Source: Sabellastarte sp. h YS-2021 (taxonomy: Eukaryota; Annelida; Polychaeta; Sabellida; Sabellidae). From it: a stretch of 64,000 bases of DNA. Below, in pieces: positions 13,652 through 61,544 of the stretch. The position numbers were made by a program, and so were the translations under genes. The stretch covers positions 62,777,603 to 62,841,602 of the forward strand of contig OZ024929.1 of NCBI GenBank assembly GCA_964017235.1, given 5' to 3'. The notes beneath the pieces are model-generated. The model had not been told where the DNA came from and made no database searches. It saw nothing but the letters and a program-made list of their open reading frames with translations. Numbering within the stretch: position 1 is the stretch's first letter; each line of letters begins with the position of its first letter.

Positions 13652-14159
13652 TTATGTCAGCTGACTTGTCAGTCAGCTGACATTATGTCGTCACTCTGCG
13701 GCGTCCGCGTACGCGAACGCGTCCGCGTGAACAACTTCTTCTCCAAAACTACAAGGCCTAGAGACGTGCTGTTTTTTTTAAAAGATACCTTATCTATCGA
13801 GGATGAAAAATTGTTCAAGGCATGCAAATCTGTCTGTTCGTCTGTTTGCTAGAGACATTACAAGGGGGGTACCCCCACCAAAAGTGTGAAAATTTCAACA
13901 CTTAATCACAATTTTCTCAGTGACTATTGCAGGGATTTCTCTCATATCTTGCATATATGTACTAGGCCAGAGGTAGATTCTCTTGTGTGAGTATGAGACC
14001 TGGATCTGTCTTACTTTTTTTTTAATAAATTTTTTTAATAATTTTTAATGCATTAAAATTCATGAAATCATGCACAAAATCATTTATAACTTCAAAAGTG
14101 TTGCATTTAGAGCATTTTGTTAAAATATGTTATTCAGCTACTTTTTTCATAGCTACAAT

Positions 14160-21014: not shown

Positions 21015-21020
21015 AGACTC

Positions 21021-22904: not shown

Positions 22905-23050
22905 CCTCTCCCGTCACATCTGTGTCTCCTTGGTACGACCTGGCTATGTCCCTTGATTAACGCTAACTGCCTTGCTTTATGTTTAGATGCGCCTTAGAGT
23001 CCATCAGTGATGGAGATTAAGCGCTATAAAAGTCCACATTAGATTAGATT
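21021..23050 (+). mobile_element. 5'-truncated CR1/L2-type LINE inserted in E3
   Basis: About 2,030 bp flanked by AGACTC at 21,015-21,020 and 23,051-23,056, a likely 6-bp target duplication. The 3' end has an L2-like GGAGATTAAGCGCTATAAAAG and an ATTAG repeat tail. The endonuclease and gag-like 5' parts are missing. The insertion is 2,036 bp including the duplication, and E3's flanking coding sequence keeps its frame across it. Confidence 0.85.
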
Positions 23051-23056
23051 AGACTC

Positions 23057-24890
23057 CTCCAAAGCCTCACTCAGTCCACCAGTAGGAGGTCGCCTCCGTT
23101 CTTTCAGGAGAGACTGGCAAACAATCAAATGTTCTCCAAACGTGTTAAACATTATCACCAATGGCTACGTACTGCCATTCCTTTCAAAGCCAAATTTGGT
23201 CAGATTCCCTCTGACCCTGTCAGAGTACAAGGCCCAGCAAAAAGACCAAGCCCTGGCCACTTGTATCCAGTCTCTCCTGTCAAAGAACACAATCGAAAGG
23301 GTGGAAAATGTAAAATCTCTCGGGTTTTACAGTCGCCTGTTCCTAGTACCCAAGCCTCACCAAAGGTGGAGGCCAGTCATAGACCTAAGCAGGCTCAACA
23401 CTTTTCTACACGTAGAAAAGTTCAAAATGGAAACTCCATAGTCCATCAGGACCTCCCTGATTCCAGGGGAGTGGGTATCGTCAATAGATCTGTCGGACGC
23501 TTACCTACACATCCCCATCCACCCAAACTCAAGGAAATACAAGTCTCAGGTGTTCCAGTTCACCTCCCTCCCATTCGGACTAGCCACAGCCCCCCAGGTC
23601 TTTACAATGATTGTAAAGGAAGTGAAACTAATGGCCCTCTCCAGAGGACTCAGAATTCACCAATACCTGGACGACTGGCTGATCAGGTCCCAGTCTCAGG
23701 AGGAAGCCCAAGTGAAGACTCAGGCGGTGGTAGACCTAACCCAGTCCTTGGGGTGGATAATAAATCAGGAAATATCAGAACTGAAACCTACTCAGGTGTT
23801 TTCGTTTGTGGGCTACGAATACCATCTAGATTCAGCCCTTGTAAAACCCACTCAAGAGAGATGGCTCAAACTTCAGGATTTGATCCTACGACTCAAGTCA
23901 AAATGTGTTTTGACTGCAAGATGTTTGATGTCGCTAATTGGGTTGCTTGCCTCAACGGAGAAAATGGTCCCGGAGGGACGCCTTCACATGAGGCCCTTTC
24001 AGTTTCATCTCAAGGAGCACTGGAGATATCCTCAGTCGCTGGACAACCTCCTTCCTTGGACAGAATCCATTGCAGCCCACCTAGATTGGTGGCAAAATCC
24101 CTCAAACGTGATGAAAGGTGCAGACCTTCATCCCAAGGTTGGGGCGCTCACTTAGATCAAAATTCTACAAAGGGTCTGTGGTTAGACCGGGAAAAAAGGC
24201 TACACATAAATGTCCTAGAACTGAAGGCGGTCTCCCTGGCCCTTCGAGACTTCAAGGACCAGTGCCAGAACCAAACAGTGCTAGTTGCGACGGACAACTC
24301 AACAGTGGTAGCCTACATCAACAAACAAGGAGGAACTCACTCAGCAGAGATGTGTGCTCTCCTGTGGAAGATCATGACCTGGTACCATCACTACCACATA
24401 ACATTGAAAGCCAGGCACATTCCAGGGTGCCTGAATGTGACGGCCGACCTACTGTCCAGGTCCAACCAAGTGCAGTCAACAGAATGGTCTCTGCATCCGC
24501 AGGTGTTCAAACAGATCTGCCAGAAGTGGTTCACACCTCATGTAGACTTATTTGCCACTCACCTGAACCACAAACTTCCACTGTACGTATCTCCTGTCCC
24601 AGACCCAAAGGCTTGGGACATAGATGCTCTAAACATAAACTGGATGAACCTCACGGCCTATGCTTAACCTCCTACGGCTCTCCTTCACAAGGTGATCCAA
24701 AAGATCAAGCAATGCCATTGCCTGATCATCGTAATAGCCCCAGGCTGGCCAGGGATGCCCTGGTTTTGGGACCTAGTGCAGCTCTCAACAGAGATCCCAC
24801 TACAACTCCCAGTGTCAACGACCCTACTCAAACAGTCCCACAAGTATGTGTTCCACAACAACCCACAACAGCTGAACCTCCACGCCTGGT
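23057..24890 (+). pseudogene. pol: E3 DIRS pol: RT, RNase H, methyltransferase-like
   Basis: RT starts at the VGGRL motif just after the LINE. Conserved blocks are SLGFYSRLFLVPKP, WRPVIDLSRLN, SSIDLSDAYLHIPI and FTSLPFGLATAP, and the catalytic YLDDWLIR (about 23,663) is intact. RNase H keeps GWGAHL, LELKAVSLAL, ATDNSTVVAYIN and DLLSRSN. A Dam-methyltransferase-like domain follows (VDLFATHLNHKLPLYVSPVP; APGWPGMPWFWDL). Defects: TAG at 23,439-23,441, a deletion with a frameshift at about 24,110-24,150 just before the first RNase H catalytic Asp, and TAA at 24,665-24,667. It cannot make a full protein. Confidence 0.85.
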
Positions 24891-26049
24891 GTCTAGGAGC
24901 GGACAACTCCAAGAACAAAGCTTCTCTGTGGAGGTGGCAGAGAGAATTGCTGCTCCTCAGCGGTCATCAACAAGGACCATCTACAAGTCAAAGTGGGCCC
25001 TATTTGAAAAATGGTGCAGAGAAAATTCGGTGGATTTCTCCACTCCATCTGTGAAACAAATCTCAGATTTTTTCATGTACCTGTACCAAGACCTAAACAG
25101 GCGCCCCTCGACCATTGATGGCTACAGGACTGCAATCGTTGACACTTTAGGCCCAACGGCCCACCATATTGCACACAATGCAGACCTTCATAGGTTACTC
25201 TCCAGTTTTCACAGGGATCGTCCAAAAAGTTCCAGAAATCTACCTAAGTGGAACCTTTCTGTTGTTCTCAATGAGCTCACAAAAGCACCCTTTGAACCTA
25301 TGAAAGACACAGACCTCAATCATCTTACCCTCAAAACTGCTTTCTTGCTAGCTTTGGCCTCCGGCAAACGCCGCAGCGAAATTCATGCCTGGGTCGCAAA
25401 CAAAGTATCTAATCTAGGCCAATGGGAAAAGGTCGCCTTGTTCCCTTGTTCTGATTTCATAGCCAAAAACCAACTAGCAAGAGAAGGTTCTCAAAGTGTG
25501 TCTCCGGTGACTATTCCTGCTTTGACTACCATTGTAGATAGACAATTTAAAGAAGACAGGACCCTGTGTCCGGTGCGGGCCCTGAGGTACTATTTGGACC
25601 GAACCAAAGACCTGAGAGGGTCTCGTTCCCTCCTTTTCATCTCCTTCAAGAAAGGACATACCTCAGACATCAGACCCGCTACTCTTTCTTCCTGGTTGAA
25701 ACAAACCATCCTACTTTGTTATAAACAAGCAGACCAACAAGTCTTGGATTTGGTCCAAGTTAAAGCGCATGACATCCGGGCCTTCACGGCCTCTAAGGCC
25801 TTTTACGGTGGGGTATCGGTGGACCAAATCATGCAAGCCTGTCACTGGAAAGCTCACAACACTTTTACAAATTTTTACCTAAAAGACCTTACTTGGTCAG
25901 ACAACGACAACAATATGTATCTGGGACCCGTAGTGGCGGCACAACAAGTCCTAGATCCTTCCCCTCAGACCAGTTGTCCTCGGAAAGAAAAAAGGGGGGG
26001 GGTCACATCCGCTACAACCAAGTTTTCAAGAGTCTCTCCCAGGATCTAG
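24890..26049 (+). CDS. E3 DIRS tyrosine recombinase, intact
   Basis: Integrates the circular DNA intermediate. The recombinase frame overlaps the end of pol in another frame, as usual in DIRS. The domain starts near EQSFSVEVAERIAAPQRSST. Catalytic residues seen: Arg in ASGKRRSEIHAW (about 25,360), His-x-x-Arg in KAHDIRAF (about 25,765), His in ACHWKAHNTF (about 25,838) and the Tyr in NFYLKDL (about 25,875). It ends at TAG 26,047-26,049 without a stop or frameshift, although gag and pol of the same element are dead. The frame is open from 24,118, but the upstream part is a shadow of pol; the true start is unclear and may involve splicing or frameshifting. Confidence 0.82.
25988..26002 (+). promoter_or_regulatory. 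A6G9 purine tract at the end of E3 YR
   Basis: A6 followed by G9, near the YR stop. Equivalent tracts occur in E1 (56,377-56,392), E4 (38,206-38,216) and E8 (1836-1851). The function is unknown. Confidence 0.6.
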
Positions 26050-27875
26050 GTATTCTTTTACCTTCAAGATGTTAAGGGTAAGGTCATTTTTGTTTTTAGT
26101 TATCAAAGTAATTAAGCGGCCCGTCAGGGACGCTTATTTGTTTTCACCGAAGTTCGACTGATCACCGCCGCCGCCGGATTATGGTCTCCCTTGAATAACT
26201 TCTTAGCCTTTCAAATTTTTCTTCCCTTCTTATCTTTCTTTAAAACTATAGGGGCGGGAAAATTTTTTGAGCTACTTTGCGCAGACCTTAAGCTTTACTT
26301 AAGGTAACCTTAAGCATACCTCCAAAACACCTTGTCATCGCGTTTCGGAAAAAACCACACACACCTGTGCTATAAAATTTATCAGGTACATTCTAGACCA
26401 AATTTCCAAGGTCGGAAAGGATTTTCTCATCAATCGGACCATAGATGCCTGAATGGGAGGCGTTTTATTTTCGTAAATTTTTTAAAAATGGGTACTTGGT
26501 CTGTATCTCAAAAACGGTCAGGATTTCGGCGTTTTGTTGGAATAAGTTATTCAGCTACTTTTTGATAATCTTTCACATGCCGAAGTTTTCGCCCTGTATC
26601 TGCAATTTTAAGGTCACCTTAATGTCAAAAAACGGGGTTTTAGCCCTCCAGTTCACTTAGTTTTCACTTTTTTCAACCAAACTTGGCACATATATTAAGA
26701 TTTGCCAAAGGAATATCCTGACTTTATGGTGACCTTAAACTCAAAATGTTAATGGACATTTGGCCTGCTTAAAGTCATCAAATTGGAATAAAATGCTCTG
26801 GGTCCTTTCTTTTTCCATTTTTTTATATCGAAATTATCACTGGTATTAAACTAGATAAAAATAATACTTATGGTCACCTTAAACTCTCAGTATGAATGGA
26901 GTTGTAGCCACCTTAAAGTGAAATAAGGGGGTTTTCAGCCTCCAAGTATCTTATTGGTCGACTGACCTCAGTTAAACTTTGCACACTTATAAAGGATGGC
27001 AAACCAAAGGGTTATCCTGACTTTAATGTGACCTTAAACTGTTAATATAATTTTGGCCCTCCTAAAGTCATAACATTTGAATAAAGCCATCAGCTAAACT
27101 TTGTACACTTATAAAGGATGACAAAAGGGACATTCTCATTTTATGGTCACCTTAAAGTGACAATATGGATGAAGTTATGGTCACCTTGCAGTGAAATTAT
27201 GGAGTTTTTAATCTCCAGCTATCGTATTGTTCAACAGAGCTCGGTTAAATTTGTACACTTTTAAAGATGACATTAGGGACATTCTTATTTTCTTTCCACC
27301 TTGGAGTTCCAATACAAGTACAGTCATGGCCATCTTGACGTGAAAATGAGGATTTTCAGCCCCTAACTGATTTACTGTTCAGTAACATCAGTTTAACTTG
27401 ACATTGATTATACTAAAGTAAGATTTTGTATGACATTTCACTTAAAATTCCTGTACTTAAGAGGCTTTGGCCATCTTAACATGATAAATAAATACTTCTT
27501 GCTCCCTCCTCATTTATTTTAACACTTTTTAAAACCACACCTGGCATATGTATGCTTAAAAATATGTATGCTGTCTGGCAAACCTAATCTCTTAGTGTTT
27601 ATGAAGTTATGACATCTTCAAAGAAAAAAATGAGCTATTTATGATGCACTGATGTGGTTATTAACATATTGCAACTGATCAGTGTTCACATAATATAAAT
27701 TCCCAATTTTAGGCAGATTAAAAAAACCACATTCTTCTGATTCCATTCATTTGGAAATGTGGGGATATAACTTTTCCTTTTTGGAAAAAAAGCTTCAATT
27801 GATTCAACTTTTGTTTTGTAGAAGGAGTTGATGATCTAGCTACTTGTTCACATAGACTATATAAATTGGTCAAAT
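26050..27875. repeat. E3 post-YR sequence with degenerate ~150-170 bp repeats
   Basis: After the E3 3' non-coding start, the ATCACCGCCGCCGCCGGATTATG block (about 26,160) and a TATCTCAAAAACGGTCAGG box (about 26,511) mark another satellite-type element. From 26,580 to about 27,500 a degenerate repeat recurs, with GGTGACCTTAAACT, TTTTCAGCCTCCA and ACTTATAAAGGATG. The part from 27,500 to 27,875 shows nothing recognisable. Confidence 0.6.
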
Positions 27876-28083
27876 GTTAGTGCAATCACCCCTTGGTGAT
27901 TGCGTGTCAGTCGGTTTGTACTAGTCCGTGTAATAAACTCGTCCGTCTGCTTGTGGGCCAATCATTTCTGCTGTTTCTGTTTCAACCAATCAGAAGCTTT
28001 TATTGTTTTAGCTAGTGCAGGGACCTCATTCAGTGTCATTATATATCTAGAGTTTGATGAATGAACATTGGAAAATAAAAGTC
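27876..28083 (+). repeat. E5 repeat A1
   Basis: Starts GTTAGTGCAATCACCCC and ends GGAAAATAAAAGTC. Identical by eye to A2. Confidence 0.95.
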
Positions 28084-28197
28084 TTAATTTCTTCCATTGT
28101 TTTAGCTTTTAGTTATGGCTTTGTGTACATGTTGTCACTGAACCTTTTTCTTTCTGTCGTTTGTGTGGTCACGCTAGTGACGAAATCTCGTGTGGAT

Positions 28198-29727
28198 ATG
28201 CTTGCATGCAAAAAGTGCGGGACTGAACACGAAAAACCTACTGGTAATAAATGTGAACGGTTTAAAATGGATAAAGAAGAAAAGAAAGACAATACTAAGG
28301 AACAATCTGTTAAGAAGACACCAAAGAACAAGCCGTCCACGTCTGGGTCATCACAGGACAAGATGATGGAGCTCATGCTCGCGTCTATGTCATCTGTCAC
28401 GGAAAAGTTAGCCGCGATAGAGGAACGTATCACGGGCTTGACAGAGAAATCTCATGACATGATACAAGAATCTTCCAGTAGCCGCAAATCCCGTTCACGT
28501 GAGAAGTCAAAGAAACGTGAATCTTCAGACGAGAGGCAGAATGTCTTCACTACACACTCCGTCATACAATCTGATACAGGTATAGCTTATTCTAAAGTGT
28601 TCCCGGACACGGCTGTAGCATTAAAACACACAGCCACACCTGCCAGAGTGAAGAAACTTAAGAGTGACGCTGACTTGGGAGTTGCTCCACTCTCGCGAGA
28701 ACTCATTCCAACGACACCTTATTCGTTTGCTAGTTTAGCCACTCCGGCGAGAGTTACATCCACCATCACGCGTCCCATTCCTGCTGTAACAGTTTCTCAA
28801 CACTGGGAGACAACGGGTGACTTACAAAACAAAACAGAGTTTCAAGTACAAGACAAACAGCCTCAACGTGATTTTAATCAGAACATTTTATTACATACCG
28901 ACCAGTACGGGAATCCCGTTCAGGTCCAAGCTATGGTTGAACCTACAGCAGTTCCCGTGCAGCCAGAGCCAGCTTTCTTTGAGAAACCTGCAGAAAGTGT
29001 TAACAACTCGCAGTCTATTGATGCGTTGAGAGCCAACCCCATGATACAGAAGTTAGTGGAGGAGAGAGTGGCAGTCCTCGAGAGTAGAATGAGATCTGAA
29101 CTTCAACAGGGTACGAGTCACAGATGCAAGAGTGGACGTTACAACATTGCAGAAACACCACATAATGCCCCCCATCTAAGATGGCCTAACGAGTCTTGTT
29201 TCACTGGGACACAAAGAAAACGCACTCCGTACGATGACCTCTCACTGGGTCAATTTGTGGTGGGATACATTAACAATGTTCTTGATGTACAGCATGTAGA
29301 GACAATGAAGCACATGCTAACGGAGTTAGGGGAAGTTGTGAAATTAGCAGAAAATCTTTCATGGCCAATCACAAGAGGTGCGTTCGCAGTATCTATGCAC
29401 AAAATAGAGGAAGAGGCTATCACATGGACAGACCGTCGTGTCTTGGCAGACAATAGATTGACATACTCTCAGTCGGCCGTTTTTAGTGGGAGTGTTACTA
29501 TGTCCCCTAGACCACCAAATTCACCTCAGATTGCTGGGGGGACGAAAAAGATCGTTTGCAAATGGTACAATGAGAATTCGTGCCCTCACAACCAAGACCA
29601 TTATGACACTACAGGGACGACTCTGTTTAAGCATGTATGCATGCATTGTTTTAAGAACTTGAAGCGTAATAACGCACACAGAGAATCTGATTGCCTCAAC
29701 AAGAATCGAGTGTTTACTAGTGAATAG
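28198..29727 (+). CDS. gag: E5 Gag-like protein
   Basis: The ATG at 28,198 (MLACKKCGTEHEKPTGNKC) is chosen because it begins a cysteine cluster. The frame extends upstream to 28,057 with a hydrophobic stretch that overlaps repeat A1 and is less likely to be translated. The protein has a charged Lys/Glu-rich N-terminus, an SSRKSRSREKSKKRES basic stretch, and a C-terminal Cys/His domain (CKWYNENSCPHNQDHYDT then HVCMHCF and HRESDC). About 510 residues. It ends at TAG 29,725-29,727, after which the same frame stays open into pol. Confidence 0.75.
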   Translation: MLACKKCGTEHEKPTGNKCERFKMDKEEKKDNTKEQSVKKTPKNKPSTSGSSQDKMMELMLASMSSVTEKLAAIEERITGLTEKSHDMIQESSSSRKSRSREKSKKRESSDERQNVFTTHSVIQSDTGIAYSKVFPDTAVALKHTATPARVKKLKSDADLGVAPLSRELIPTTPYSFASLATPARVTSTITRPIPAVTVSQHWETTGDLQNKTEFQVQDKQPQRDFNQNILLHTDQYGNPVQVQAMVEPTAVPVQPEPAFFEKPAESVNNSQSIDALRANPMIQKLVEERVAVLESRMRSELQQGTSHRCKSGRYNIAETPHNAPHLRWPNESCFTGTQRKRTPYDDLSLGQFVVGYINNVLDVQHVETMKHMLTELGEVVKLAENLSWPITRGAFAVSMHKIEEEAITWTDRRVLADNRLTYSQSAVFSGSVTMSPRPPNSPQIAGGTKKIVCKWYNENSCPHNQDHYDTTGTTLFKHVCMHCFKNLKRNNAHRESDCLNKNRVFTSE

Positions 29728-31758
29728 GGACGCACCGGCCGTACTCTGCATTCTAATGACTATGACTGTAAATTTGGTGATGGGTGTTTTGCTGGGGTCC
29801 ACCCCAATAATATTATTACTTATGAAAAGCGTTCTGCTCTTATTTGTAACGTCTACTCTTGTGTTTTAAAAATTCATGGCCTTGGGCCATACAATAACCT
29901 TTATGATAGAAAAGTTTCACACTTTATTGGTGCACCATTAATATCATGTAATCTCAGTCACATACTTTGTGGTGTGCCCATTATGTCTGATAAATCACAT
30001 GTTGTGCCTATGACGGGCCACCAGGAGAGCTGGTCTCCCGAGTGTAATGAGAATAACATTAAAACTTTGTTTGACGAGAACTTGGGTTTTGTTACTGAAA
30101 ACACCGACTTGTCGGACTTACCTTGTGACCTACCTGTGAACATGAATGATCCTATTGAATATCTCAGGGTCGTTGATCTCGTTCTGGCCTCAGGTCTTCC
30201 CAATTACAAATCTGCTAGGATCCCTCTGCCTTCAGGTTTTAATTGGGACTACATAGAACAGCAAATACAAGATTACCATGATAAAATTGTCTTAGACTAC
30301 ATCAAGTTTGGCTTTCCACTGAGTATAAACCCTGACTGCTCCATTAGATCTAACGCAACTGACAACCACTCTTCAGCTAAGGCATATGGGGACGAGGTCA
30401 CCCAGTTCATACAAGAAGAGTTAAATCACGATGCGTTACTTGGTCCTTTTGAACAAATACCGCATCCAGCCTTTACTTGGTCTCCCTTGATGACACGCCC
30501 TAAGGGCACAGGTCGTCGTATCATCTTGGACCTCTCTTATGGTGATCACTCCCTCAATAAGGCCACAAATAGAGAATGCTTTGATGGTAAACCCTTTACT
30601 TTAAAACTGCCGTCACTGGACCACTTAATATCAGATCTTGAGAAATATGGTCCGGATGCCAGACTATTCAAGCTTGACATTTCTCGCGCTTTTAGGAACG
30701 TGAGAGTTGACCCAGCAGACGCCATACATCTAGGCGTCATGTGGCAGAACAAATATTATATTGATAAGAACCTGGCTTTTGGGGCTGTCCATGGAACAGC
30801 CATTTTCGAAAGAGTTTCTAATCTCATTCGCTTTATCTTGGCCAAGCAGGGTTTCAAAGTACTGAACTATATAGATGACATTTACGCAGTTTGTCATAAA
30901 GATACAGCTCAAGCAGCATATGAGACCTTGATTAGCGTTGTTGGAAATATTGGCCTCCCTATTAACATTTCAAAACTGTTCCCCCCTTCTACAGAATTAT
31001 CTATATTAGGTATTGTGGTTAATGTTAACACCAGAACATTTAGCATACCAAACGAGAAGTTGGAGGAAATCTCGTTACTATGTCACGAGATGTTATTGAG
31101 AGATCAAATGTCTAAGCGTGAGCTACAGTCATTATTGGGGAAGCTGTTGTACGTCTCTAGGTGCGTGCGAGGATCTCGTATCTTTCTAAATCGCATATTA
31201 CAGCTACTGCGGGATCACCATAGTAGGAACCGTATTATCTTAACACGAGAATTCCATTATGACCTGCTGTGGTTTCTCAAGTTTTTACGGTCCTTTAACG
31301 GAGTAGTGGTCTTTAGGCGTGCCAGGGCTTCACAAACAGTTTTTGTAGACGCAACTCTCACGAGAATTGGGGGAATTTGGGGCTCTCGGGCATACACAGC
31401 TGAGATCCTGCCTAACATCTCGTTCGAGACCTCTATTACCCAGCTGGAGATGTACAACATTGTCGTAGCATTGAGACTGTGGGCACGCGATTGGAGTAAT
31501 AAAATAATTTGTATAAGGTGTGATAATGAGAGTGCGGTGTCGGTCTGCAATTCTGGTAAGACACGTGATAGTTTTCTCAATTTATGTCTGTATGAGTTGT
31601 GGTTACTGGTCTGTAAATATAATGTGGATTTACGTGTACAACATATTAAGGGCACAGACAATGTGATTGCGGATGCGTTATCCCGCAACAAGTGTGAAAA
31701 GGTAGGTCCAGTCACTTGGGAAACAGTAACAGACAGTATGTTATACATGTCTTTGTAG
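29728..31758 (+). CDS. pol: E5 Pol: reverse transcriptase and RNase H
   Basis: The first internal ATG is at 29,983, but the frame is open without a stop from the gag TAG. RT motifs: RRIILDLSYG, FKLDISRAFRNV (motif A Asp), VHGTAIFERVSN, and the catalytic NYIDDIYAV (about 30,870). RNase H follows: TVFVDATLTRIGG (Asp), QLEMYNIVVAL (Glu), IRCDNESAVSV (Asp) and VIADALSRN (Asp). All key residues are present and no frame break occurs. The type of RT and its order before a YR match Ngaro elements. It ends at TAG 31,756-31,758 and overlaps the YR frame by 43 nt. Confidence 0.9.
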   Translation, partial: GRTGRTLHSNDYDCKFGDGCFAGVHPNNIITYEKRSALICNVYSCVLKIHGLGPYNNLYDRKVSHFIGAPLISCNLSHILCGVPIMSDKSHVVPMTGHQESWSPECNENNIKTLFDENLGFVTENTDLSDLPCDLPVNMNDPIEYLRVVDLVLASGLPNYKSARIPLPSGFNWDYIEQQIQDYHDKIVLDYIKFGFPLSINPDCSIRSNATDNHSSAKAYGDEVTQFIQEELNHDALLGPFEQIPHPAFTWSPLMTRPKGTGRRIILDLSYGDHSLNKATNRECFDGKPFTLKLPSLDHLISDLEKYGPDARLFKLDISRAFRNVRVDPADAIHLGVMWQNKYYIDKNLAFGAVHGTAIFERVSNLIRFILAKQGFKVLNYIDDIYAVCHKDTAQAAYETLISVVGNIGLPINISKLFPPSTELSILGIVVNVNTRTFSIPNEKLEEISLLCHEMLLRDQMSKRELQSLLGKLLYVSRCVRGSRIFLNRILQLLRDHHSRNRIILTREFHYDLLWFLKFLRSFNGVVVFRRARASQTVFVDATLTRIGGIWGSRAYTAEILPNISFETSITQLEMYNIVVALRLWARDWSNKIICIRCDNESAVSVCNSGKTRDSFLNLCLYELWLLVCKYNVDLRVQHIKGTDNVIADALSRNKCEKVGPVTWETVTDSMLYMSL

Positions 31759-32732
31759 GAGTGCCTGTGCAGTCATACCCCTTGCTGAGGCAGGCACTGG
31801 CCAGAAGAGATCAGGGAATTAGGAAACACACTGCTAATCAGTATGACAGACAATTCAAATTGTTTTTAGCCTTCACCTTGTCAAGAAAAATTACACACAT
31901 GGACTCCATATCTACCTTGTTACTGTTCTTGGAATTTCTGGCATCTAATGCTCTTACATACAGAGTGGTCATGAATTATATGTCAGCCCTAAAATCCATG
32001 TTTGGGAAATATGGTTGGTCCCCCCTGGCTTTTGAATCCCCTTTGGTTAAGAGAATGCTAAAAGGAATCAACTATACAGTCCATAACCAACCTACCCCTA
32101 GAGGCCTCTTTACTCTACAACAAATTCGTGAGATATCACGTCTCTGCGAGATCTATGAGTCCTCTTTGACATATCGAGCTGCCTTCTTACTGGCCTTTTA
32201 TGGCCTTCTCCGCATTTCAAACATTGCCCCTCCATTCGCTAAAGCCTTTGATCCAGCAAAGCATTTGCTCAGACGAGATGTTACTTTCTTGTACCCAGGC
32301 ACTCACATTGCGTTAAAATGGGCTAAGAACTTGCAAGCACCTGAAAGAACACACACAGTCAAGCTCCCACGGGTTCGGGATCCCATGTTGTGCCCTACAC
32401 AGACCTTGCAACATCTCTTAAGCAAACGTGCGTTGAAACCCTCTGATCCGTTGTTCATATTGGATGACTATGCATTGTTATCACAATCTCACCTCAGGAG
32501 GCGTTTAGCTACTCTCGTTCGTAGTCTCGGCCTTCCCATTACGGGATTTGGCTTTCATACATTCAGACGTTCGGGTGCCACCTTGGCTTATGACTCTAAC
32601 ATCTCGCTCACGGCTATCAAAATGCATGGAGTGTGGAATAGTGACGCGGTCTGGTCATACATATCGCATAACACATCACAATCATTACAGGTCCCCCTCG
32701 CTTTCCAAACGTTAGCAAATGCACTACCATAA
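31716..32732 (+). CDS. E5 tyrosine recombinase
   Basis: The integrase of the element. An N-terminal SAM-like segment (HTANQYDRQFKLFLAF) precedes the catalytic domain with Arg in YGLLRISNI, His-x-x-Arg in FHTFRRSGA, and HGVWNSDAVWSYI carrying the His/Trp and the Tyr nucleophile. Intact to the stop at 32,730-32,732, 14 bp before B1. No ATG precedes the N-terminal domain in this frame. The start at 31,716 is TTG, so translation probably depends on a frameshift in the 43-nt overlap with pol, or on non-AUG initiation. Confidence 0.88.
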   Translation: MGNSNRQYVIHVFVGVPVQSYPLLRQALARRDQGIRKHTANQYDRQFKLFLAFTLSRKITHMDSISTLLLFLEFLASNALTYRVVMNYMSALKSMFGKYGWSPLAFESPLVKRMLKGINYTVHNQPTPRGLFTLQQIREISRLCEIYESSLTYRAAFLLAFYGLLRISNIAPPFAKAFDPAKHLLRRDVTFLYPGTHIALKWAKNLQAPERTHTVKLPRVRDPMLCPTQTLQHLLSKRALKPSDPLFILDDYALLSQSHLRRRLATLVRSLGLPITGFGFHTFRRSGATLAYDSNISLTAIKMHGVWNSDAVWSYISHNTSQSLQVPLAFQTLANALP

Positions 32733-32746
32733 ATGCTGGTTGGGCT

Positions 32747-32920
32747 TGGGCTTTTATGTATATGCGTTTTGTACATCTCACTCTACACTCTAGGTCTCGT
32801 TTGAGATCTCGTACACATATACTTGCTAATGTGATAGAAACTAATAAACGTAGTTTGCCCAACTCTCGTTTATCTTTCTTCATTGTTCTTGTCCTATCAG
32901 CACGGCTTGCAATACTGACT
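32747..32920 (+). repeat. E5 repeat B1
   Basis: Starts TGGGCTTTTATGTATATGCG and ends GCAATACTGACT. Identical by eye to B2 at 39,248-39,421. E4 begins at the next base. Confidence 0.95.
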
Positions 32921-32954
32921 TTTTATTTCATAAAAATGTAAATATACTATACCA

Positions 32955-33140
32955 TATGAAAACACTTGGGTAGGCGTGGCTTGGCGTTCGGTGACCGCCA
33001 CGTACACCGTACATAGAATTTAAATATATGAGGGGAGACCCTCTTTAAACCTATATACTTGCTACCTTTGACCCCTGGTGACCTAATTCACTCTGCCATG
33101 CGCAGTAATACAGAAATAGTTCATTCTTTTTGTGGCGGTT
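32955..33140 (+). repeat. E4 5' inverted terminal repeat
   Basis: Spans CATATGAAAACACTTGGG through GTTCATTCTTTTTGTG. Its reverse complement is at about 38,717-38,905 with hardly a mismatch. Confidence 0.9.
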
Positions 33141-33211
33141 GAACTATCAACAGGCGTTTTGCTACCTTTTAAAAGACCTGCATTATTTACGTATTTCTTC
33201 ATAATTCGTAT

Positions 33212-33650
33212 TATCGCTCATCTGGTCACGTGGTGTTAGAATGTCGGATTACCTTTGGAGATATTCATTTCCTTTGTAAATTAATTCTTTTTATGCACTT
33301 CTACAGGCATTTTTATTTTAATTTACGGTATTCCTTCATTCTTTCAACGAAATTCTTCGTTTCTCCACGTATTTTGACCGTATTGACTGTGCATTGTTTT
33401 TCACGTAGTTACCTATTTGGTATTTCGCTCATCGGGTCACGTGGTGTCAGAATGTTGGACTTCCTTTGGAAATAATCATTTCCGCGGTGAATTAATTCAT
33501 TTATGCACCTATACAGGCATTATAATTCACCTTTTACGGTTTTCCTTCATTCTTTTTACGAAATTCTTCGTTTCACCACGTATTTTGACCATATTTTTGA
33601 GCTTTTTACGAATCATTCACCAGGTCATGTGACGATGACGTCACATCCAA
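33212..33650 (+). repeat. E4 leader: 211-bp tandem duplication
   Basis: Two diverged copies start at GCTCAT (33,216 and 33,427), each with GGTCACGTGGTGT, ACAGGCATT, ACGAAATTCTTCGTTT and CCACGTATTTTGACC. A partial third ends in GATGACGTCACATCC (about 33,633). CACGTG and TGACGTCA are E-box-like and CRE-like sites, so the block could be a transcriptional control region; this is inference. Confidence 0.65.
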
Positions 33651-35849
33651 AATGGAGGTCAACCGATCGGTTGTCAGAAAATATTCATTTTCATAGTGAT
33701 TACAGCATTTCCAGGTTTGTTTATACATTCCTTCTACATATTTCTTTGAATATTATTATGTCAAAGCATAATGTGTAATATTTTCAATTGTTAACGCATT
33801 TTTCATAGCGTAACATTACGGTATCTACTGCCTACCATTCACGGTTCTTTACTTGTTCAGGCCCTTTCATTTGACATTTCTGGAATTCGGATCCTGGTTT
33901 CAGTGTTTTGGGGTTCAATTCTGAGCCTAGGGTCTCCATTTTAGCCTTTCTCCACCTTCAATTTTGAAGGTTGGGGGTTTACGGCTTCTGGGGAGGACTT
34001 TGTCTTCCACCTTTTCGAGATCCATTTCACTGTTGCTGGTTTCCTACATTCCAATTTTATGTCAATTGGTCATTTGGTTTCTCAGTCCATTTTTAGTCCT
34101 TTGGCCTCTTTTGTGCCTAGGCTTCAGTCTAATCAGACTGCTTTTTGGACTGGGATTACCTTCTCAAGACCATTCATGTTCAGGGTCCCTTAATTAGAAG
34201 AGTTTATCAGTTGAATCCAACTGATTTTGCTACTTCCTAAACTCTACTCCATTCATTTTCTAAATCTAGAAAATTTTTGTTTGGGGTTTGGTGGAAATCT
34301 TCTGTTACTCAACAGCTTTCTATTGTGTTTTCACCATTTTTTAGATCTGACGATCAATGGGCACATCTCCCTTTTGGGTATGTTGGGGGTTCCTCTGTCT
34401 ACAGTTAACCTTTAGGCAGACTTCAGGAACCCTATTCCAATTTTTTTGTGCCAGTCTGTTGGACTATATGGGTGCTTAGGACTTCATCCTTTAATCTTCT
34501 CCTCAGAAGATTTTCAAGCTTCCTGTCTAACAGAATTAGGGAATAAATTTGACTGCTCTTTTCTTTTGATCAGTCTTATTTTTCTCTAAGTCAACCACTT
34601 TTCCAGGCTTAGAAGTTCCTTCATGAGGCCAGATTCTTACTTTCTGTCACTCATTCATTTTGGGATTTTCTTATTCTAAGTTTTGTAGGTTGGGTAATTA
34701 CCCAATTTTCCTTCTAAAACTTAGTTTTGCCAAGTACAAAATCCTCTTCAGAGGGTTTTTTGGGTTGACTTCTTCAGGTTTCCGGACCTGGGATCTAGCC
34801 TGAAGGGGTTCTTAAGACCTTCTCTTCCCTAGGTAGAGTTCCTCTGCTATTAGGGGAGATCTGAGATGGACCTTAGGGTCCTTATTTCTGTGGGATTTTT
34901 TCCTTCAGTCCTGTTTTGTTGATCACTTATTCAAGTTGATTGACAAGGCAATACTTTCTCAGTGGTCTTTTTCATCCACCATTCTTTGGACATCTGTTTC
35001 AATGGGTCTTCTAGCTACATTTTAGCTGGTTGATCTATGGCCTTTTTTCAGCCATCTTTGCACTTTATTTTGAGAGATTTCTTTATCCATTTCCCTCACT
35101 TGTGCTTAGTCACTTGGTAGGGTTAATTGGTCCTTTTTTGGTCTTATGCTGTTTCTTGTGATGTCTCTCTTGGGAGACCATTTCTTCTCACATATAACGG
35201 TATAAGCAGAAGGTTTTCATGTGGCCCTTACTCAAGGTGCCTCTTTTAAGCTATCTGCATTAGCCTCTTGAGGCACACCAATTAAGACCTTTTTTCCTCC
35301 CATCCAGGGAGTTTTCTCTCTAACTTAGTGCTTTTAGGATGTGGTTCCTTTCCAGGTTCCAACATTCTGATGGTGGAATGCCTTCCAGAGGTAGAGGCTC
35401 AACCTCTATTATGGTGTCCTTCAGGAGATAAGAGTGTTGTTTTACTCAAATTTTCACTCTTACTTCCAGATCCCTCCACTTGCCAGTGGGAGGTCAACTG
35501 ATTCCAGTGGTCTCTCAGATTCCACTTTCCTGATTCTTTCAGCTCTTCTCCACAGAAGAATGCTGTTCTTTGTCATTCAGTCTCACACTGTCTGTTCACA
35601 TGAGCAGTTCAAGTATCTTGAGCTCCTGTTTTCCTGATTTTTCAGGGCATTATCCTTGACAAAGATATACTGGAAACCACAATTAGATTTATATCTTTTC
35701 CTGGTTTTCCAGACTATCAGGATGCAACTTATCAGTTGATCATTTTCTCAATTGGCCAGTGGACCACTTCTCTTCCTCAATTTGCCTCCTTTCTCTCCTT
35801 TGGCTCCTTTGGTTCACTCTTGCTCATAGTTTTGCTTTTGGGCAAGGTG

Positions 35850-37000
35850 TACCACTTTGTGGCAATGCCTTATGGTCTAGCCACTAGCCTTTCAGGATTT
35901 ACTTCCTTAGTCAAGGAAGTAAGGAAAGTTGGCTTTGAGGTTGGGCATCTCAGTGCACATGTGACTACAAATTGGCTCATTAGAGCCAATAGTTGTCAGA
36001 GGCTCTTTTTTCAACTCTATTAGAGTTGACTTTCATCTTGGAGTGGTTCTTAGCAGGAAGTATTTACATCTGTTTCTTTAACAGGTCTCCTTCCTGGGTC
36101 AGGTTCTTAACCTGTTTCTTAATTACCTCTCTAACTGGGCTCCTTATTTCTTTTGGCTTCCACTTGGAAGCTGCTTCTTCAAGGTCCCTACACATGACAC
36201 TTCTTCTGTGTCATCTCAGGACACTTGATTTTCCTTCTCAAAGGTGCTCTGGATTTTCCATTCCTTGATCCTTCTATGAAGGTTCATTCAAGATGGTACT
36301 ATCCTGGGAACTATGTCTTTGCATACCTCCCTTTAATTCCCTAGTTTTTACATCTACTTTCATGGATGTTTCACTGCGGGGTTTGGGAGTTCTTTGTGCT
36401 CTGTGGACCACCTAAGGTCTATTTTTGATGTAGCAGTCCAGTCTGTGCATCAGTTCTAGAGCTCATAGCTGTCCTTTTTGCTCAGACATTTGTTCCTCTT
36501 TTATCCTTTCATCAAAGGATCATCCTTTCAGCCTCAAACAACTCAGATGTCTTGTTCTCAAGACATTTGTTCCTCATTTGTAAGGGATTCTTCAGATAGT
36601 CCAGGTAACACTGTTGTCTGGGCTTTCTTTTTATCAAGACAGCTTCCACTCTTGGGACATGTGTATTTTGGCATCTTTTGCCATTATTTTTACAAGAACA
36701 AGTCTGTTCTTCCACCTCATGTTCCAGGGGCATGAATCTTTGGCAGACCATCTCTGGAGGTCTTTTCTCACCTTTCATATAAGGTGGCCCTTCAATTCTT
36801 GGATCTTCAGATGGTAGTCTCAGACTTCTCATCTTATTTAGATCTCTTTTGCCATGTGATTCAATCACAAGCTGCTCTTACATGTGCCTCCTGTGCTAGA
36901 TCCTTAGGCTCTGGCAACAGATGCCCTGGAGTGTTTTGGTCCGGAGTACTTATTTTACTCCTTCCCTCCTTCAGCTCCTTGTCCTCTATGGCCATGAAGT
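35850..37000 (+). pseudogene. E4 decayed pol (RT, RNase H, MT-like remnants)
   Basis: Fragments align in order with E1/E3: MPYGLATSLSGFTSLVKEV (about 35,860) corresponds to the RT block FGLATAP..VKEV. The following segment retains NWLIRAN where E3 has the catalytic YLDD motif, which is lost. MDVSLRGLGVL (about 36,361) corresponds to the first RNase H Asp block, and VLELIAV (about 36,450) to the Glu block. LDLFCHVIQSQ (about 36,838) corresponds to the MT-like start. No continuous frame exists. Confidence 0.7.
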
Positions 37001-37199
37001 TAATCAACTTTCAGAGCTGTATCATGCTTCTTGTAGCCTTTCCTGGTAATTGCCAGGTTTGGCCTCAAGATCTCCTTTAAGAAAGCCATTGGCTCTTCCT
37101 CTTATTCTTTTATAACAATCTCATCTAGAGTTTTGTTATTTTCCTTTCTTCAAGCTTTCTGGCTGAAGTCTCCTTTAACAAGAATTTTCACAGGAGGGG

Positions 37200-38060
37200 T
37201 CTTGGAGGATTTTTATCCTCCATAACTTTCTATGAAGCAATGTGGAACTGCTTCAAAAAACTTGTGAGAAACATGGCCACTCTGCTATGCTTCAACTGTC
37301 CCATTTATTGCTGTTTGTTCCTTTTAAGGAATTATTTTTCAGACAATAGGGATACAGGTCAGCTCTCTCCAGGTACTACTTGGAGTTGGGTTCTTATAGG
37401 AGCTAGGAAGTCTCATTTAGAGCTTCTTTAAGTCCAGAATTAGGGTAGTCGTCGCCTACCTGTTTGGTACTTAATCCTTGGTTCTGCAGGCTCTTACCAA
37501 GGCTCCTCTTGAACCCTTTTCATTTGCTGAGCCAAGTTTTTCACATTTTAGACAGTCTTTCTTACTCCCTTTCTTTGGGAAGGAGAAGGAGTGATTTTGT
37601 TTCCTTTATTTAAAGGTTTTCTCTCACTCTTTAGGGATGGCCTAAGTCATCCTTAAGTCAGATCTTACTTTCCTGGCTTAAGCCAGTTATCTTCAGAAGG
37701 CTCTTCCTGCTTTGACTTTTTGTCTTTGGTCAGGATGACTTAGAAGACCTCTCCTTTTTTACAGTCAGATTCCTAAGATACTTTCTATCTAGCTATTCTG
37801 ACTTAAAAGGATTTCTTCTTGGTCTTTCTTCTGAAGTCCAAGAGGGTGATATTGCTGCTCAGACAATATCTTTTTGGATAGCACTTTATCCTTTATTCCC
37901 TCAATCTCTGTTCCACAGAGAATGCATCTCTTCATGGTGTCAGGGCTCATCATGTCAGGGCACAGGGGTCTTCCTGGTCCTTTAGGGGTGGAATCCCACT
38001 CCTAGTCAACATGAGATCCTGCACGTGGAAGAGCCATTCCACTTTTACATCCTTCTATTT
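37200..38060 (+). pseudogene. E4 decayed tyrosine recombinase
   Basis: The C-terminal part is the best preserved: a block with HHVRAQG (His-x-x-Arg position), FRGGIPL, then CTWKSHSTFTSFYF at about 37,940-38,060, matching the E1/E3 block around CHWKSHNTF and the Tyr nucleophile. Frame breaks occur before and after it. Confidence 0.7.
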
Positions 38061-38205
38061 TAGGAATGTATTTCCTTCAGAGATGTTGTTCTTAAGAATC
38101 TCTTATGATTTCTTAAGTGGAGTGGACATCCTTTTCCACTCAGCCATTTCTCTCTCTTCTACTTAAATTCCTCAATTTAAGTCCATCTGAAACTTTTAGT
38201 TTCAG

Positions 38206-38216
38206 AAAAAGGGGGG
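38206..38216 (+). promoter_or_regulatory. A5G6 purine tract after E4 YR
   Basis: A5 followed by G6 at the position where E1, E3 and E8 also have A-run/G-run tracts. Confidence 0.5.
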
Positions 38217-38364
38217 TGGCATTTCCCTTTTAGGGAATCTATTCTTCATCTCTATTTTCAGAACCGTGCTTCTTAGTGCCTCTGGGCATGTTCCTATTCT
38301 GAGCACAGGGCATACTTATGCCTTCTCCTTTGAGCTGACCTAATAGGGTGTAGACAGCAGTGCT

Positions 38365-38450
38365 GAAGTTAGTGCAGTGGTTAATGCTACTCACTTAGCT
38401 CACTCGAGTTATTGCTTCAGCACAGAGGTTTTGGGTTCAATTGCATTGCA
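38365..38450 (+). repeat. tRNA-like sequence in E4
   Basis: TTAGTGCAGTGGTTAATGC resembles an A box and GGTTTTGGGTTCAATTGC a B box, spaced as in a tRNA with a long variable arm. A tRNA-derived SINE fragment is more likely than a real tRNA gene. Confidence 0.45.
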
Positions 38451-38548
38451 CTAGGAAGTATCCTTTTGTAGCAATTTAACCTTAGGGTGGTTTTCCTCAG
38501 TCTGTCTTTTTCCCACCATCCTTCCATGTGGGCATTCAACCCAAGTGT

Positions 38549-38660
38549 TTTCATATGGTATAGTATATTTACATTTTTATGAAATAAAATTTCATATTTT
38601 TAAATGTAAAATGCATTTTTATGAATAAAAATGTATATACTTACCATATGAAAACAGCAA
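38549..38660 (+). repeat. E4 internal complementary region
   Basis: The left half is the reverse complement of the E4 5' terminus (from CAAGTGTTTTCATATGG to TGAAATAAAA), and the right half of its 3' terminus (TTTCATATTTTTAAATG to CCATATGAAAAC). The junction is near 38,600. Confidence 0.9.
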
Positions 38661-38699
38661 ATCACCCTCCCGCCTGCCCCGCTTTTAAAGACCTTTTTC

Positions 38700-38953
38700 C
38701 AGCATTTATGTTTATTCACAAAAAGAATGAACTATTTCTGTATTACTGCGCATGGCAGAGTGAATTAGGTCACCAGGGGTCAAAGGTAGCAAGTATATAG
38801 GTTTAAAGAGGGTCTCCCCTCATATATTTAAATTCTATGTACGGTGTACGTGGCGGTCACCGAACGCCAAGCCACGCCTACCCAAGTGTTTTCATATGGT
38901 AAGTATATACATTTTTATTCATAAAAATGCATTTTACATTTAAAAATATGAAA
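38700..38953 (+). repeat. E4 3' inverted terminal repeat and terminus
   Basis: Reverse complement of 32,955-33,140, then the 3' terminal sequence ending at 38,953, immediately before A2. Confidence 0.9.
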
Positions 38954-39161
38954 GTTAGTGCAATCACCCCTTGGTGATTGCGTGTCAGTCGGTTTGTACT
39001 AGTCCGTGTAATAAACTCGTCCGTCTGCTTGTGGGCCAATCATTTCTGCTGTTTCTGTTTCAACCAATCAGAAGCTTTTATTGTTTTAGCTAGTGCAGGG
39101 ACCTCATTCAGTGTCATTATATATCTAGAGTTTGATGAATGAACATTGGAAAATAAAAGTC
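38954..39161 (+). repeat. E5 repeat A2
   Basis: 208 bp, identical by eye to A1 at 27,876-28,083. Confidence 0.95.
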
Positions 39162-39247
39162 CCCGTCCCTCCCTCCCTCATTGTATAATGTGTTTTAACA
39201 ACATTTTAGTTTCATGTGTAATTTTAATGTGAACCATACAGGTGTTA

Positions 39248-39421
39248 TGGGCTTTTATGTATATGCGTTTTGTACATCTCACTCTACACTCTAGGTCTCG
39301 TTTGAGATCTCGTACACATATACTTGCTAATGTGATAGAAACTAATAAACGTAGTTTGCCCAACTCTCGTTTATCTTTCTTCATTGTTCTTGTCCTATCA
39401 GCACGGCTTGCAATACTGACT
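39248..39421 (+). repeat. E5 repeat B2, 3' end of E5
   Basis: 174 bp, identical by eye to B1. An 86-bp spacer (39,162-39,247) separates it from A2. Confidence 0.95.
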
Positions 39422-40132
39422 GTATACACCTGACTTCTTTCACAATATAAGATGCTTGAAAAAAAAAAACACTTTCTCATAAACAGTTTTTCTTGTACAG
39501 CATTTTATGTATCTCCAGCTGAGTGGAAATGAATGACTTGTCCTTTTCTTCTTCCTCCCCAACTCTTTTGTGTGATATCTATCAAAAGGCACATTTATTG
39601 AAAGTCTTTCTATGCAGAAAGAACCCCCCCAACTCCCCTTTAGTGCACACAAAAAGCAAGTTTGTGCATTATTGAAGTGTGGAATGGATCATGACCTCCT
39701 ACTCTTATTCCTAAGCCTAGATTTTTAATTTCAATTGCTAAATCATTCATAAATATTGCAATATATAAACTCATACTTTTCTTTCCCAATAAATCCAGTA
39801 ACATTTTTCTAGCACTATAGCTTGACTTGTTTGTAACTTGATTTTTCTTGTAAGCAATAACTGAAGCAAAATCAGTAACTTTTGAACAAAAAGTCTAACA
39901 CACTTTGGTTCACTGGATTTTATTAGTGGTTTTGTTAAGTTTTTAGTTGAAGCACAACCAGTAATTTTAAACAATAGTTCTTAAGCATCTTAGTCCACTG
40001 CATTCAATTAGTGTTTTATACTTAAGTCTGATACTAATGACACTTTCAACAGAAATGTCTCTGGTCAGTGTACCCTTTCACTTGAGACCTCTTCTCTGAG
40101 AACATTACCAAAGAATGTAGGACATACAGAAT
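39422..40132. other. Unassigned sequence within E3
   Basis: AT-rich. The short frames have no motif. I see nothing to annotate. Confidence 0.4.
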
Positions 40133-61000: not shown

Positions 61001-61150
61001 TGAATAATTAATTCACCTTTTGGGTGGTCTACCACAGAGTGAAGTTGCACATCTATAGCTATTTGCATAGCTGAGTCATATACCTGCTAAAATGAATAAA
61101 TGTCTTTTATCTCCAAAAGTATTGCAGATAGGCTATTTTTTCTAAATCGA
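58100..61150 (+). repeat. ~145-bp satellite array (Sat3) with a higher-order repeat
   Basis: About twenty units. From 59.2 kb, TTTCTTCTAAATAAG recurs every 143-147 bp. A three-unit block of 433 bp (from about 59,640) is repeated nearly identically at about 60,073. Units contain TTTATCTCTAAAAGTATTRC and CACCTACTTTTGGGTGATCTAC. Confidence 0.93.
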
Positions 61151-61490
61151 GGTGACTTGGCTACCGACAATGGCGGTTTCACAGTATATTGCTTTCGGCT
61201 ACCGTCTTGTATTTACGACGACTATCGTACATATCTACTGTCATGGACATATCACTACTTTAATCAATTTTAAATATTTTACATATTAAATGAAACTCAG
61301 AGTAAATTTACTTACATGATTTGTCATAACAAATGTATCCCTTACTTACAATAACTGAATGTTAATTAATGCATGTTTAATAATTAATTAATAATTAATT
61401 ATGTATTATGTACCCTTCCATGTATATCTGTCAGTTTTTACCCCACAGCCCTTAAGGGCTGTTGGGGTATTGTTTTCACCCATGGTGTCC

Positions 61491-61535
61491 GGATGGGCGG
61501 GCGTCCGGGCGGGCGGGCGGGTGGGTGGGTGGCGG
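61491..61535 (+). repeat. G-run tract, predicted quadruplex former
   Basis: At least eight GGG runs separated by one base (C or T), with one longer gap near 61,502. This fits a G-quadruplex pattern and sits directly before the 146-bp array. Confidence 0.7.
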
Positions 61536-61544
61536 GAAAAGAGT

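What the first reader, a model, noticed from the sequence alone, without database searches (positions are those of the whole stretch)
33960..38230. Interior of DIRS element E4 is packed with short perfect hairpins and is strongly pyrimidine-biased
Reading 34.0-38.2 kb by eye, perfect stems with tiny loops recur every few tens of bases. Eight-bp stems: 34,493 (AATCTTCT, loop CCTC), 35,901 (ACTTCCTT, loop AGTC), 35,971 (ATTGGCTC, loop ATTA), 36,011 (TCAACTCT, loop ATT), 36,547 (ATGTCTTG, loop TTCT) and 38,161 (ACTTAAAT, loop TCCTCA). Seven-bp stems: 34,206, 36,194, 36,503, 37,204, 37,848 and 38,187. There are many six-bp stems, and palindromes such as TTGGGTAATTACCCAA (34,690, nested in a 9-bp stem) and CTGGCTTAAGCCAG (37,673). 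A rough expectation for random sequence is about 0.5 eight-bp stems with loops up to 6 in this length; I see six, despite a base skew that should lower the number. Sister coding regions in E1 and E3 do not look like this. One possibility is repeated intrastrand template switching on a single-stranded replication intermediate, turning imperfect palindromes into perfect ones. Another is selection for a folded RNA or ssDNA.
Basis: partly seen in the sequence, partly recalled or inferred. Interest (0 to 1): 0.88.

Follow-up and report, generated by a model that had tools for sequence, protein, structure and literature searches.

The report
Hairpin-packed interior of a dead retrotransposon
A jumping element whose own protein genes are long dead, yet which was copied many times recently, carries about ten times more tiny perfect hairpins than chance allows, probably left by copying slips long ago; a function for them was looked for and not shown.

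Summary
The hairpins are real. Window 33960-38230 holds 23 perfect stems of at least 7 bp (21 non-overlapping) against 2.4 in dinucleotide shuffles; the excess fades with distance between the arms. E4 is a DIRS element (32921-38953) with intact end repeats but decayed coding relics in three frames. It is young: 40 places, itself included, match at 99-100%. Older relatives, mostly 12-15% apart, share many of the hairpins, the pyrimidine bias and the lack of CpG, so these predate the subfamilies. Signs of arm copying: abrupt stem ends, a preference for 4-nt loops, one hairpin with one arm unlike coding relatives, one inverted loop. Against ongoing copying: recent gains are about at chance. Selection for structure stays open: stems are lost less than a shift null predicts, but arms are not slower than matched flanks and a bias-free comparison is not significant.

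The parts
32921..38953 (+). Element E4, a DIRS-type retrotransposon without coding capacity, 6,033 bp; lies within Ngaro-like E3, itself within DIRS E1
   Evidence: Ends fixed by perfect complementarity to the internal complementary regions; both ends found in 18 of the 20 copies fetched, not in L016 and L024; nesting read from the repeats
32950..33134 (+). Left inverted terminal repeat, 185 nt, 100% complementary to the right one
   Evidence: I3
38717..38901 (-). Right inverted terminal repeat
   Evidence: I3
38539..38589 (-). Left internal complementary region: exact reverse complement of 32921-32971 (51 nt)
38590..38656 (-). Right internal complementary region: exact reverse complement of 38887-38953 (67 nt)
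33135..33959 (+). 5' leader, T-rich, CpG not depleted (o/e 1.20), with an imperfect internal duplication of about 180 nt (about 84% identical)
33960..38230 (+). Hairpin-rich interior: decayed DIRS coding region, CpG o/e 0.06
35622..36023 (+). Longest + strand open frame of the interior (133 aa), holding a decayed RT segment
   Evidence: RT named from the match to E1/E5, whose relatives carry PF00078; Pfam itself finds no RT here
36740..36976 (+). Relic of the part just behind RNase H
   Evidence: frame-2 match to E1 and E5; in E5 it lies behind the weak RNase H match
37888..38070 (+). Relic of the tyrosine recombinase C-terminus (label recalled from its motif)
   Evidence: frame-1 match to E5 and E1
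35899..35922 (+). Longest perfect hairpin (10 bp, loop 4); 3' arm reads K-E-V as in E1 and E5, 5' arm reads T-S-L
36154..36173 (+). Hairpin whose inner pairs differ between lineages (C-G in some, T-A in others, mismatched in others)
37203..37222 (+). Hairpin (8 bp, loop TTTT); copy L010 has loop AAAAA, read as an inverted loop one base longer
38186..38206 (+). Hairpin (9 bp, loop 3) with an A-T pair in E4 and a G-C pair in relative L059

Best explanation
E4 is a recently amplified non-autonomous DIRS element: its end repeats are intact, its coding interior is long dead, and it is presumably copied by the enzymes of another DIRS (inferred; no partner was identified). Many of its hairpins were present before its subfamilies split. 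The most likely origin is short templated rewriting: while the lineage was copied through single-stranded intermediates, a growing strand folded back over a loop of about four bases at an imperfect palindrome, copied about 7-10 bases of itself and returned, making one arm the exact complement of the other. Without protein constraint many such tracts could stay. Shown: the excess, its dependence on arm distance, abrupt ends, loop preference, sharing among subfamilies, one inverted loop. Inferred: the copying step, its timing and the enzyme.
For: Excess confined to close arms: 0.490 stems >=7 per kb per loop class at loops 0-10, 0.140 at 11-30, 0.046 at 200-300; mirror repeats 0.043. Pairing just beyond stems >=7 is at background (0.235 of 115 positions vs 0.24), so no long imperfect helices; loop 4 in 12 of 35 stems >=6, p 3.6e-5. 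Hairpin 35899: 3' arm reads K-E-V as in E1 and E5, 5' arm reads S-L, a residue pair in none of the 89 of 120 relatives that matched a search motif fixing K-E (the motif itself demands the 3' arm residues, so it says nothing on their conservation). One spacer inversion (L010) stands among five flags in 983 hairpin instances (two places are counted twice there, L001/L009 and L039/L059), a signature of template switching in yeast (PMC8604942, one section). Multi-base changes within groups match nearby reverse complement over >=7 nt in 6 of 73 (X) and 2 of 37 (Y) vs 1.4% and 1.9% in controls. Intact ends, dead interior, near-identical copies.
Against: New stems across eight lineages: >=6, 44 vs 37.3; >=7, 11 vs 13.6; >=8, 10 vs 5.3 (P 0.033). 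Near-stem mismatches do not change towards pairing. In the multi-base test several X events are at the same place and none reaches 8 nt. Stems last longer than a shift null predicts, which selection would explain as well. E5, also a DIRS, and the E1 recombinase frame show no excess, so copying through a DIRS cycle is not sufficient.
Confidence: 0.42

Rival explanations
1. The hairpins are kept by selection: the element's RNA (or single-stranded DNA) must fold into many small hairpins, for packaging by a helper, protection or stability.
For: Folding z about -2 on the + strand of E4 and -1.97 to -2.44 in four close copies; group Y and others -1.1 to -1.9, less (-0.81, -0.33) in L038 and L046. 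X-Y differences rarer in arms: 15/214 and 7/185 vs 0.14 elsewhere. Stems >=7 lost 48 vs 73.5 in eight lineages, 7 vs 20.5 in X and Y; retention 10 of 14 and 10 of 11 vs 5.6 and 4.5. In stems >=7, 31 of 43 double changes keep pairing against 40% in isolated pairs. Single compensated pairs: 36161/36166, 38186 hairpin. Arms below all other columns (p 0.011). E1 hairpins beyond synonymous shuffles.
Against: With stems chosen in other lineages arm divergence is not significantly lower (24/233 vs 324/2368, p 0.16). At columns invariant in the other lineages arms equal their flanks (27/794 vs 120/2989, p 0.25), and fixed against within-group changes give no contrast (p 0.36 and 1.0). Compensated double changes make up about 0.9% of cells in stems >=7 and 1.1% in stems of 6 against 0.7% in isolated pairs, cells not independent. 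Pairing stops abruptly beyond the stems. Wobble-type changes favour no strand consistently (mixed).
Confidence: 0.28
2. The hairpins were inherited from a hairpin-rich coding DIRS of the E1 sort and are now fading; their cause lies in that ancestor and may differ from either proposal.
For: E1, still largely open, is hairpin-rich beyond its protein in gag and RT; E1 and E4 both carry a hairpin at the same F-T-x-x-V-K-E-V codons; E4 hairpins are largely ancestral and new ones arise about at chance.
Against: The two hairpins at that site have different arms; E5 has no excess; E1's terminal repeats show no clear similarity to E4's; no close coding relative of E4 was seen, though none was searched for with its ends.
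Confidence: 0.22
3. Chance, composition bias or an assembly artefact.
For: Only the moderate excess of close inverted repeats in ordinary stretches of this window.
Against: Three kinds of shuffle, distance and mirror controls; hairpins shared by copies at separate places.
Confidence: 0.01

Closest known systems
DIRS1-like retrotransposons (tyrosine-recombinase elements)
   Same: Inverted terminal repeats, two adjacent internal complementary regions matching the two ends, about 6 kb, collinear coding relics (lay-out as in passages of PMC3266345)
   Different: No intact coding frame; interior almost free of CpG, pyrimidine-rich and hairpin-packed
Quasi-palindrome / inverted-repeat template-switch mutation (yeast, E. 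coli)
   Same: Perfect short arms, short spacers, one spacer inversion, like the arm homogenisation and spacer inversion of PMC8604942 (abstract, one section)
   Different: Some twenty hairpins in one replicating element; most predate the observable radiation; no clear excess of new events
Genome-scale ordered RNA structure with CpG suppression, as in RNA viruses
   Same: Folding z about -2 over kilobases together with CpG o/e near zero
   Different: Concept recalled, seen here only in a search listing; helices here are short and perfect, and no constraint specific to pairing survives the matched tests
E1 of the same window (DIRS with largely open frames)
   Same: Hairpin density near that of E4 in gag
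   Different: Frames largely open, with one stop in the RT frame and an inserted RT frame of another kind; hairpins within conserved peptides; CpG o/e 0.46; terminal repeats not clearly similar

Membership tests
DIRS1-like retrotransposon | Inverted terminal repeats | tested here: met
   185 nt, 100%
DIRS1-like retrotransposon | Two adjacent internal complementary regions matching left and right ends | tested here: met
   51 and 67 nt, perfect, adjacent at 38589/38590
DIRS1-like retrotransposon | RT-RNase H and tyrosine recombinase of DIRS type | tested here: inconclusive
   Only relics in three frames, about 27-43% identical to E1/E5 over the matched stretches; RNase H itself not matched, only the part behind it; Pfam finds no RT in the longest frame
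DIRS1-like retrotransposon | Coding capacity (autonomy) | tested here: not met
   Longest frame in the interior 133 aa; hence filed as a non-autonomous relative
DIRS1-like retrotransposon | No target-site duplication; circular intermediate | not tested
   Empty sites were not compared; the circle needs an experiment
Template-switch (quasi-palindrome) mutation | Perfect arms, short spacer, dependence on arm distance | tested here: met
Template-switch (quasi-palindrome) mutation | Spacer inversions among close copies | tested here: met
   One (L010, one base longer); five flags in 983 hairpin instances, four of them in L016 from a second, inverted partial copy
Template-switch (quasi-palindrome) mutation | New stems or pair-restoring changes above chance | tested here: inconclusive
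   Stems >=6 and >=7 at chance, >=8 P 0.033; restoring changes at expectation; multi-base matches raised at >=7 nt, few events
Selected RNA structure | Arms more conserved than flanks without ascertainment bias | tested here: inconclusive
   (arms vs flanks) not significant; significant but less controlled
Selected RNA structure | Excess of compensatory changes | tested here: inconclusive
   31 of 43 double changes in stems >=7 keep pairing (isolated pairs 40%), but double changes are no more frequent and cells are not independent

The most novel reading that the evidence does not exclude
Some DIRS lineages write perfect snap-back hairpins into their own genomes as they copy through single strands, so strongly that a largely open member (E1) carries them within its protein limits and a non-coding member (E4) becomes hairpin-packed: a retroelement replication cycle with a characteristic mutational handwriting.
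Probability: 0.3. Interest if true: 0.75.

Novelty: new variant of a known kind. Interest (0 to 1): 0.5.

Why it matters
A family of near-identical and graded older copies of a protein-free element is a natural record of what copying through DIRS intermediates does to a sequence. If the hairpins come from snap-back copying, they measure template switching in a retroelement cycle that is hard to study directly; if they are selected, they show an RNA fold that a dead element needs in order to be copied by others. Either way E4 shows that a DIRS with only its end repeats intact can amplify.

Tried and rejected
Arm conservation first looked strong. It was downgraded when I saw that stems picked in one lineage exclude that lineage's own losses if the ancestor was hairpin-rich; with stems picked in third lineages the effect is not significant. 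A leave-one-lineage-out shift null again gave a strong effect, though L062, L063 and L064 are near neutral there; matching columns by conservation and comparing with flanks removed it. The first synonymous-codon test of E1 used, for part of pol, an overlapping frame that is not the RT frame (8 vs 1.09); it was repeated in the RT frame (6 vs 0.74) and the frame behind it (2 vs 0.26).

Search of viral contigs for the terminal repeat: no exact match. The own-genome search with the E1 gag stretch gave 40 places at 97-100% but no DNA, so E1 could not be compared with relatives' DNA; protein relatives show that its gag hairpin codons are if anything more conserved (0.898 of 33 vs 0.813 of 178 codons, p 0.04). 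No helper of E4 was identified; its ends were not used as a query in its own genome. Host: not named by any tool; 1.786 Gb in 647 contigs would suit a large bivalve genome such as the hard clam (1.86 Gb, 19 chromosomes in passages of PMC8905726), a guess only.

Literature: 5 of 5 rows seen; 10 of 10; 1 of 1; 12 of 71; 12 of 169; 10 of 4,266; 8 of 16. No paper on a hairpin-rich non-autonomous DIRS was among the rows seen; this is no proof of absence. PMC8604942 was seen as outline, abstract and one section; PMC3266345, PMC10294476 and PMC8905726 as passages; the rest as listings.
Full report
What is there. The stretch 33960-38230 holds 35, 23 and 11 perfect stems of at least 6, 7 and 8 bp with loops of 0-10, against shuffle means of 9.9, 2.4 and 0.6; 21 of the 23 do not overlap. 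Trinucleotide and local shuffles give 3.0 and 1.75 stems >=7. The best control is distance: per loop class and kb the density is 0.490 at loops 0-10, 0.140 at 11-30, 0.086 at 31-60, 0.055 at 61-120 and 0.046 at 200-300, with mirror repeats at 0.043. Two ordinary stretches of the window give 0.190 and 0.134 at loops 0-10 and about 0.1 at 200-300. Stems >=6 favour a loop of four (12 of 35), and beyond their ends pairing is at background.

The element. Reverse complements of both ends lie side by side at 38539-38656 (51 and 67 nt, exact), and terminal repeats of 185 nt are identical. This is the lay-out of a DIRS element (PMC3266345, passages), bounds 32921-38953. E4 lies between the repeats of a Ngaro-like element (27873-39426), inside a DIRS (18723-44318), so it is the youngest of the three by nesting. 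Relics of RT, of the part behind RNase H and of the recombinase are collinear but in three frames, about 27-43% identical to E1 and E5 (labels partly recalled). The own-genome search returned 40 places at 99-100% over 1 kb, the window's own included, of 751 candidates. Of 20 copies fetched, 18 have both ends and the interiors are 98.3-99.3% identical. Thus E4 was amplified recently although its coding region had decayed earlier. The window's copy lacks 6 nt present in 20 of 20 copies, 13 nt present in the 19 that reach the place and 112 nt of leader present in all 13 copies that could be anchored exactly.

Relatives. A diverged query found groups: X (93-98% to E4), Y (77-87%) and others, mostly 12-15% apart in alignable parts (range 4-18%). 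10 of 14 X stems >=7 are also stems in Y; the single old copies keep fewer. Pyrimidine bias and CpG scarcity are shared (some rows there include flanking DNA, as in L030 and L046, judged from the coverage). Majority rows have CpG o/e 0.029 (X) and 0.022 (Y), single copies 0.08 and 0.14 on average. In E4 the leader keeps CpG (o/e 1.20), the interior does not.

Were the stems kept by selection? Several tests, told in full. X-Y differences in arms: 0.070 and 0.038 against 0.14, arms below flanks. Retention of stems >=7: 10 of 14 and 10 of 11, expected 5.6 and 4.5 under decay from a hairpin-rich ancestor (P 0.020, 0.003); stems >=6: 13 of 20 and 13 of 24, expected 9.7 and 11.2, not significant. 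Stems chosen in third lineages: 24/233 against 324/2368, p 0.16; other choices p 0.08-0.93. Leave-one-out with a shift null: stems >=7 lost 48 vs 73.5 in eight lineages, 7 vs 20.5 in X and Y, near neutral in L062, L063 and L064. At columns invariant in the other lineages: arms 0.034, flanks 0.040, elsewhere 0.059; arms against flanks p 0.25, against everything else p 0.011; fixed against within-group changes p 0.36 (>=6) and 1.0 (>=7). Within groups, variants are about as frequent in stems as outside. Double changes in stems >=7 keep pairing in 31 of 43 cells (isolated pairs 40%), but double changes are no commoner, so compensated pairs make up about 0.9% of cells against 0.7%. I conclude that stems sit in more conserved stretches, and that a constraint on pairing itself is not shown and not excluded.

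Were they written by template switching? For: distance dependence, abrupt ends, short loops; the longest hairpin, whose 3' arm reads K-E-V as in E1 and E5 while its 5' arm reads S-L, seen in none of the 89 of 120 relatives that matched a motif fixing K-E; the inverted loop in L010, TTTT to AAAAA, one base longer, the one standing case among five flags in 983 instances, the four others lying in an inverted partial copy in L016; multi-base changes matching the local reverse complement over >=7 nt in 6 of 73 (X) and 2 of 37 (Y) against 1.4% and 1.9% in controls, some X events at the same place and none reaching 8 nt in X. Against: gains across eight lineages equal the neutral simulation for stems >=6 and >=7 and exceed it slightly for >=8; single changes do not favour pairing. 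So if copying wrote the hairpins, it did so mainly before the radiation.

The comparison in the window. E1, a DIRS with largely open frames, is hairpin-rich: 5 stems >=7 in gag against 0.60, 6 in the RT frame (one stop inside) against 0.74 and 2 in the frame behind it against 0.26 in 400 synonymous-codon shuffles; its recombinase frame (0 vs 0.97), three E3 frames and four E5 frames show no significant excess. Its gag hairpin codons are if anything more conserved in protein relatives (0.898 vs 0.813, p 0.04). The feature thus follows certain DIRS lineages, coding or not, and not loss of coding alone.

Verdict. The thing is a new variant of a known kind: a non-autonomous DIRS relative with intact ends and a hairpin-packed, CpG-poor relic interior. 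The origin by snap-back copying is the leading explanation at about 0.4; selection for structure (0.28, raised by 0.01 on re-reading) and inheritance from a hairpin-rich coding ancestor remain.

Noticed in passing
19800-26049: E1 gag and RT frames carry perfect hairpins beyond synonymous expectation, e.g. an 11-bp stem at 20492 within the conserved peptide NTDFAKICI.
   Followed up: partly
33960-38230: CpG nearly absent (10 sites, o/e 0.06) while the leader 33135-33959 has 32 sites (o/e 1.20); CpA is raised (1.42), TpG is not (0.92).
   Followed up: partly
33178-33190: The window's E4 copy lacks 112 nt of leader that the 13 copies anchored exactly all carry (gap also seen).
   Followed up: partly
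35397-35401 and 37140: The window's E4 copy lacks 6 and 13 nt that the other covering copies carry.
   Followed up: yes
27873-39426: Ngaro-like element with split direct repeats (27873-28083 = 38951-39161; 32747-32925 = 39248-39426) interrupted by E4.
   Followed up: no
20958-22904: An open frame resembling a non-LTR retrotransposon RT lies inside E1 (identity recalled from its motifs, no family search made).
   Followed up: no
1-1271; 14089-16407; 58248-61147; 61399-62424: Tandem satellite arrays with periods of about 133, 155, 143 or 320, and 146 bp, some sharing a related 68-nt core.
   Followed up: no
L016:6341-7502: A second E4 fragment joined in opposite orientation to a nearly full copy.
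   Followed up: no
L029-L036 against E4 34801-34970: Group Y and L041 lack about 160 nt where L038 has complementary 8-nt stretches that far apart, so that a new hairpin seems to have arisen by deletion.
   Followed up: no
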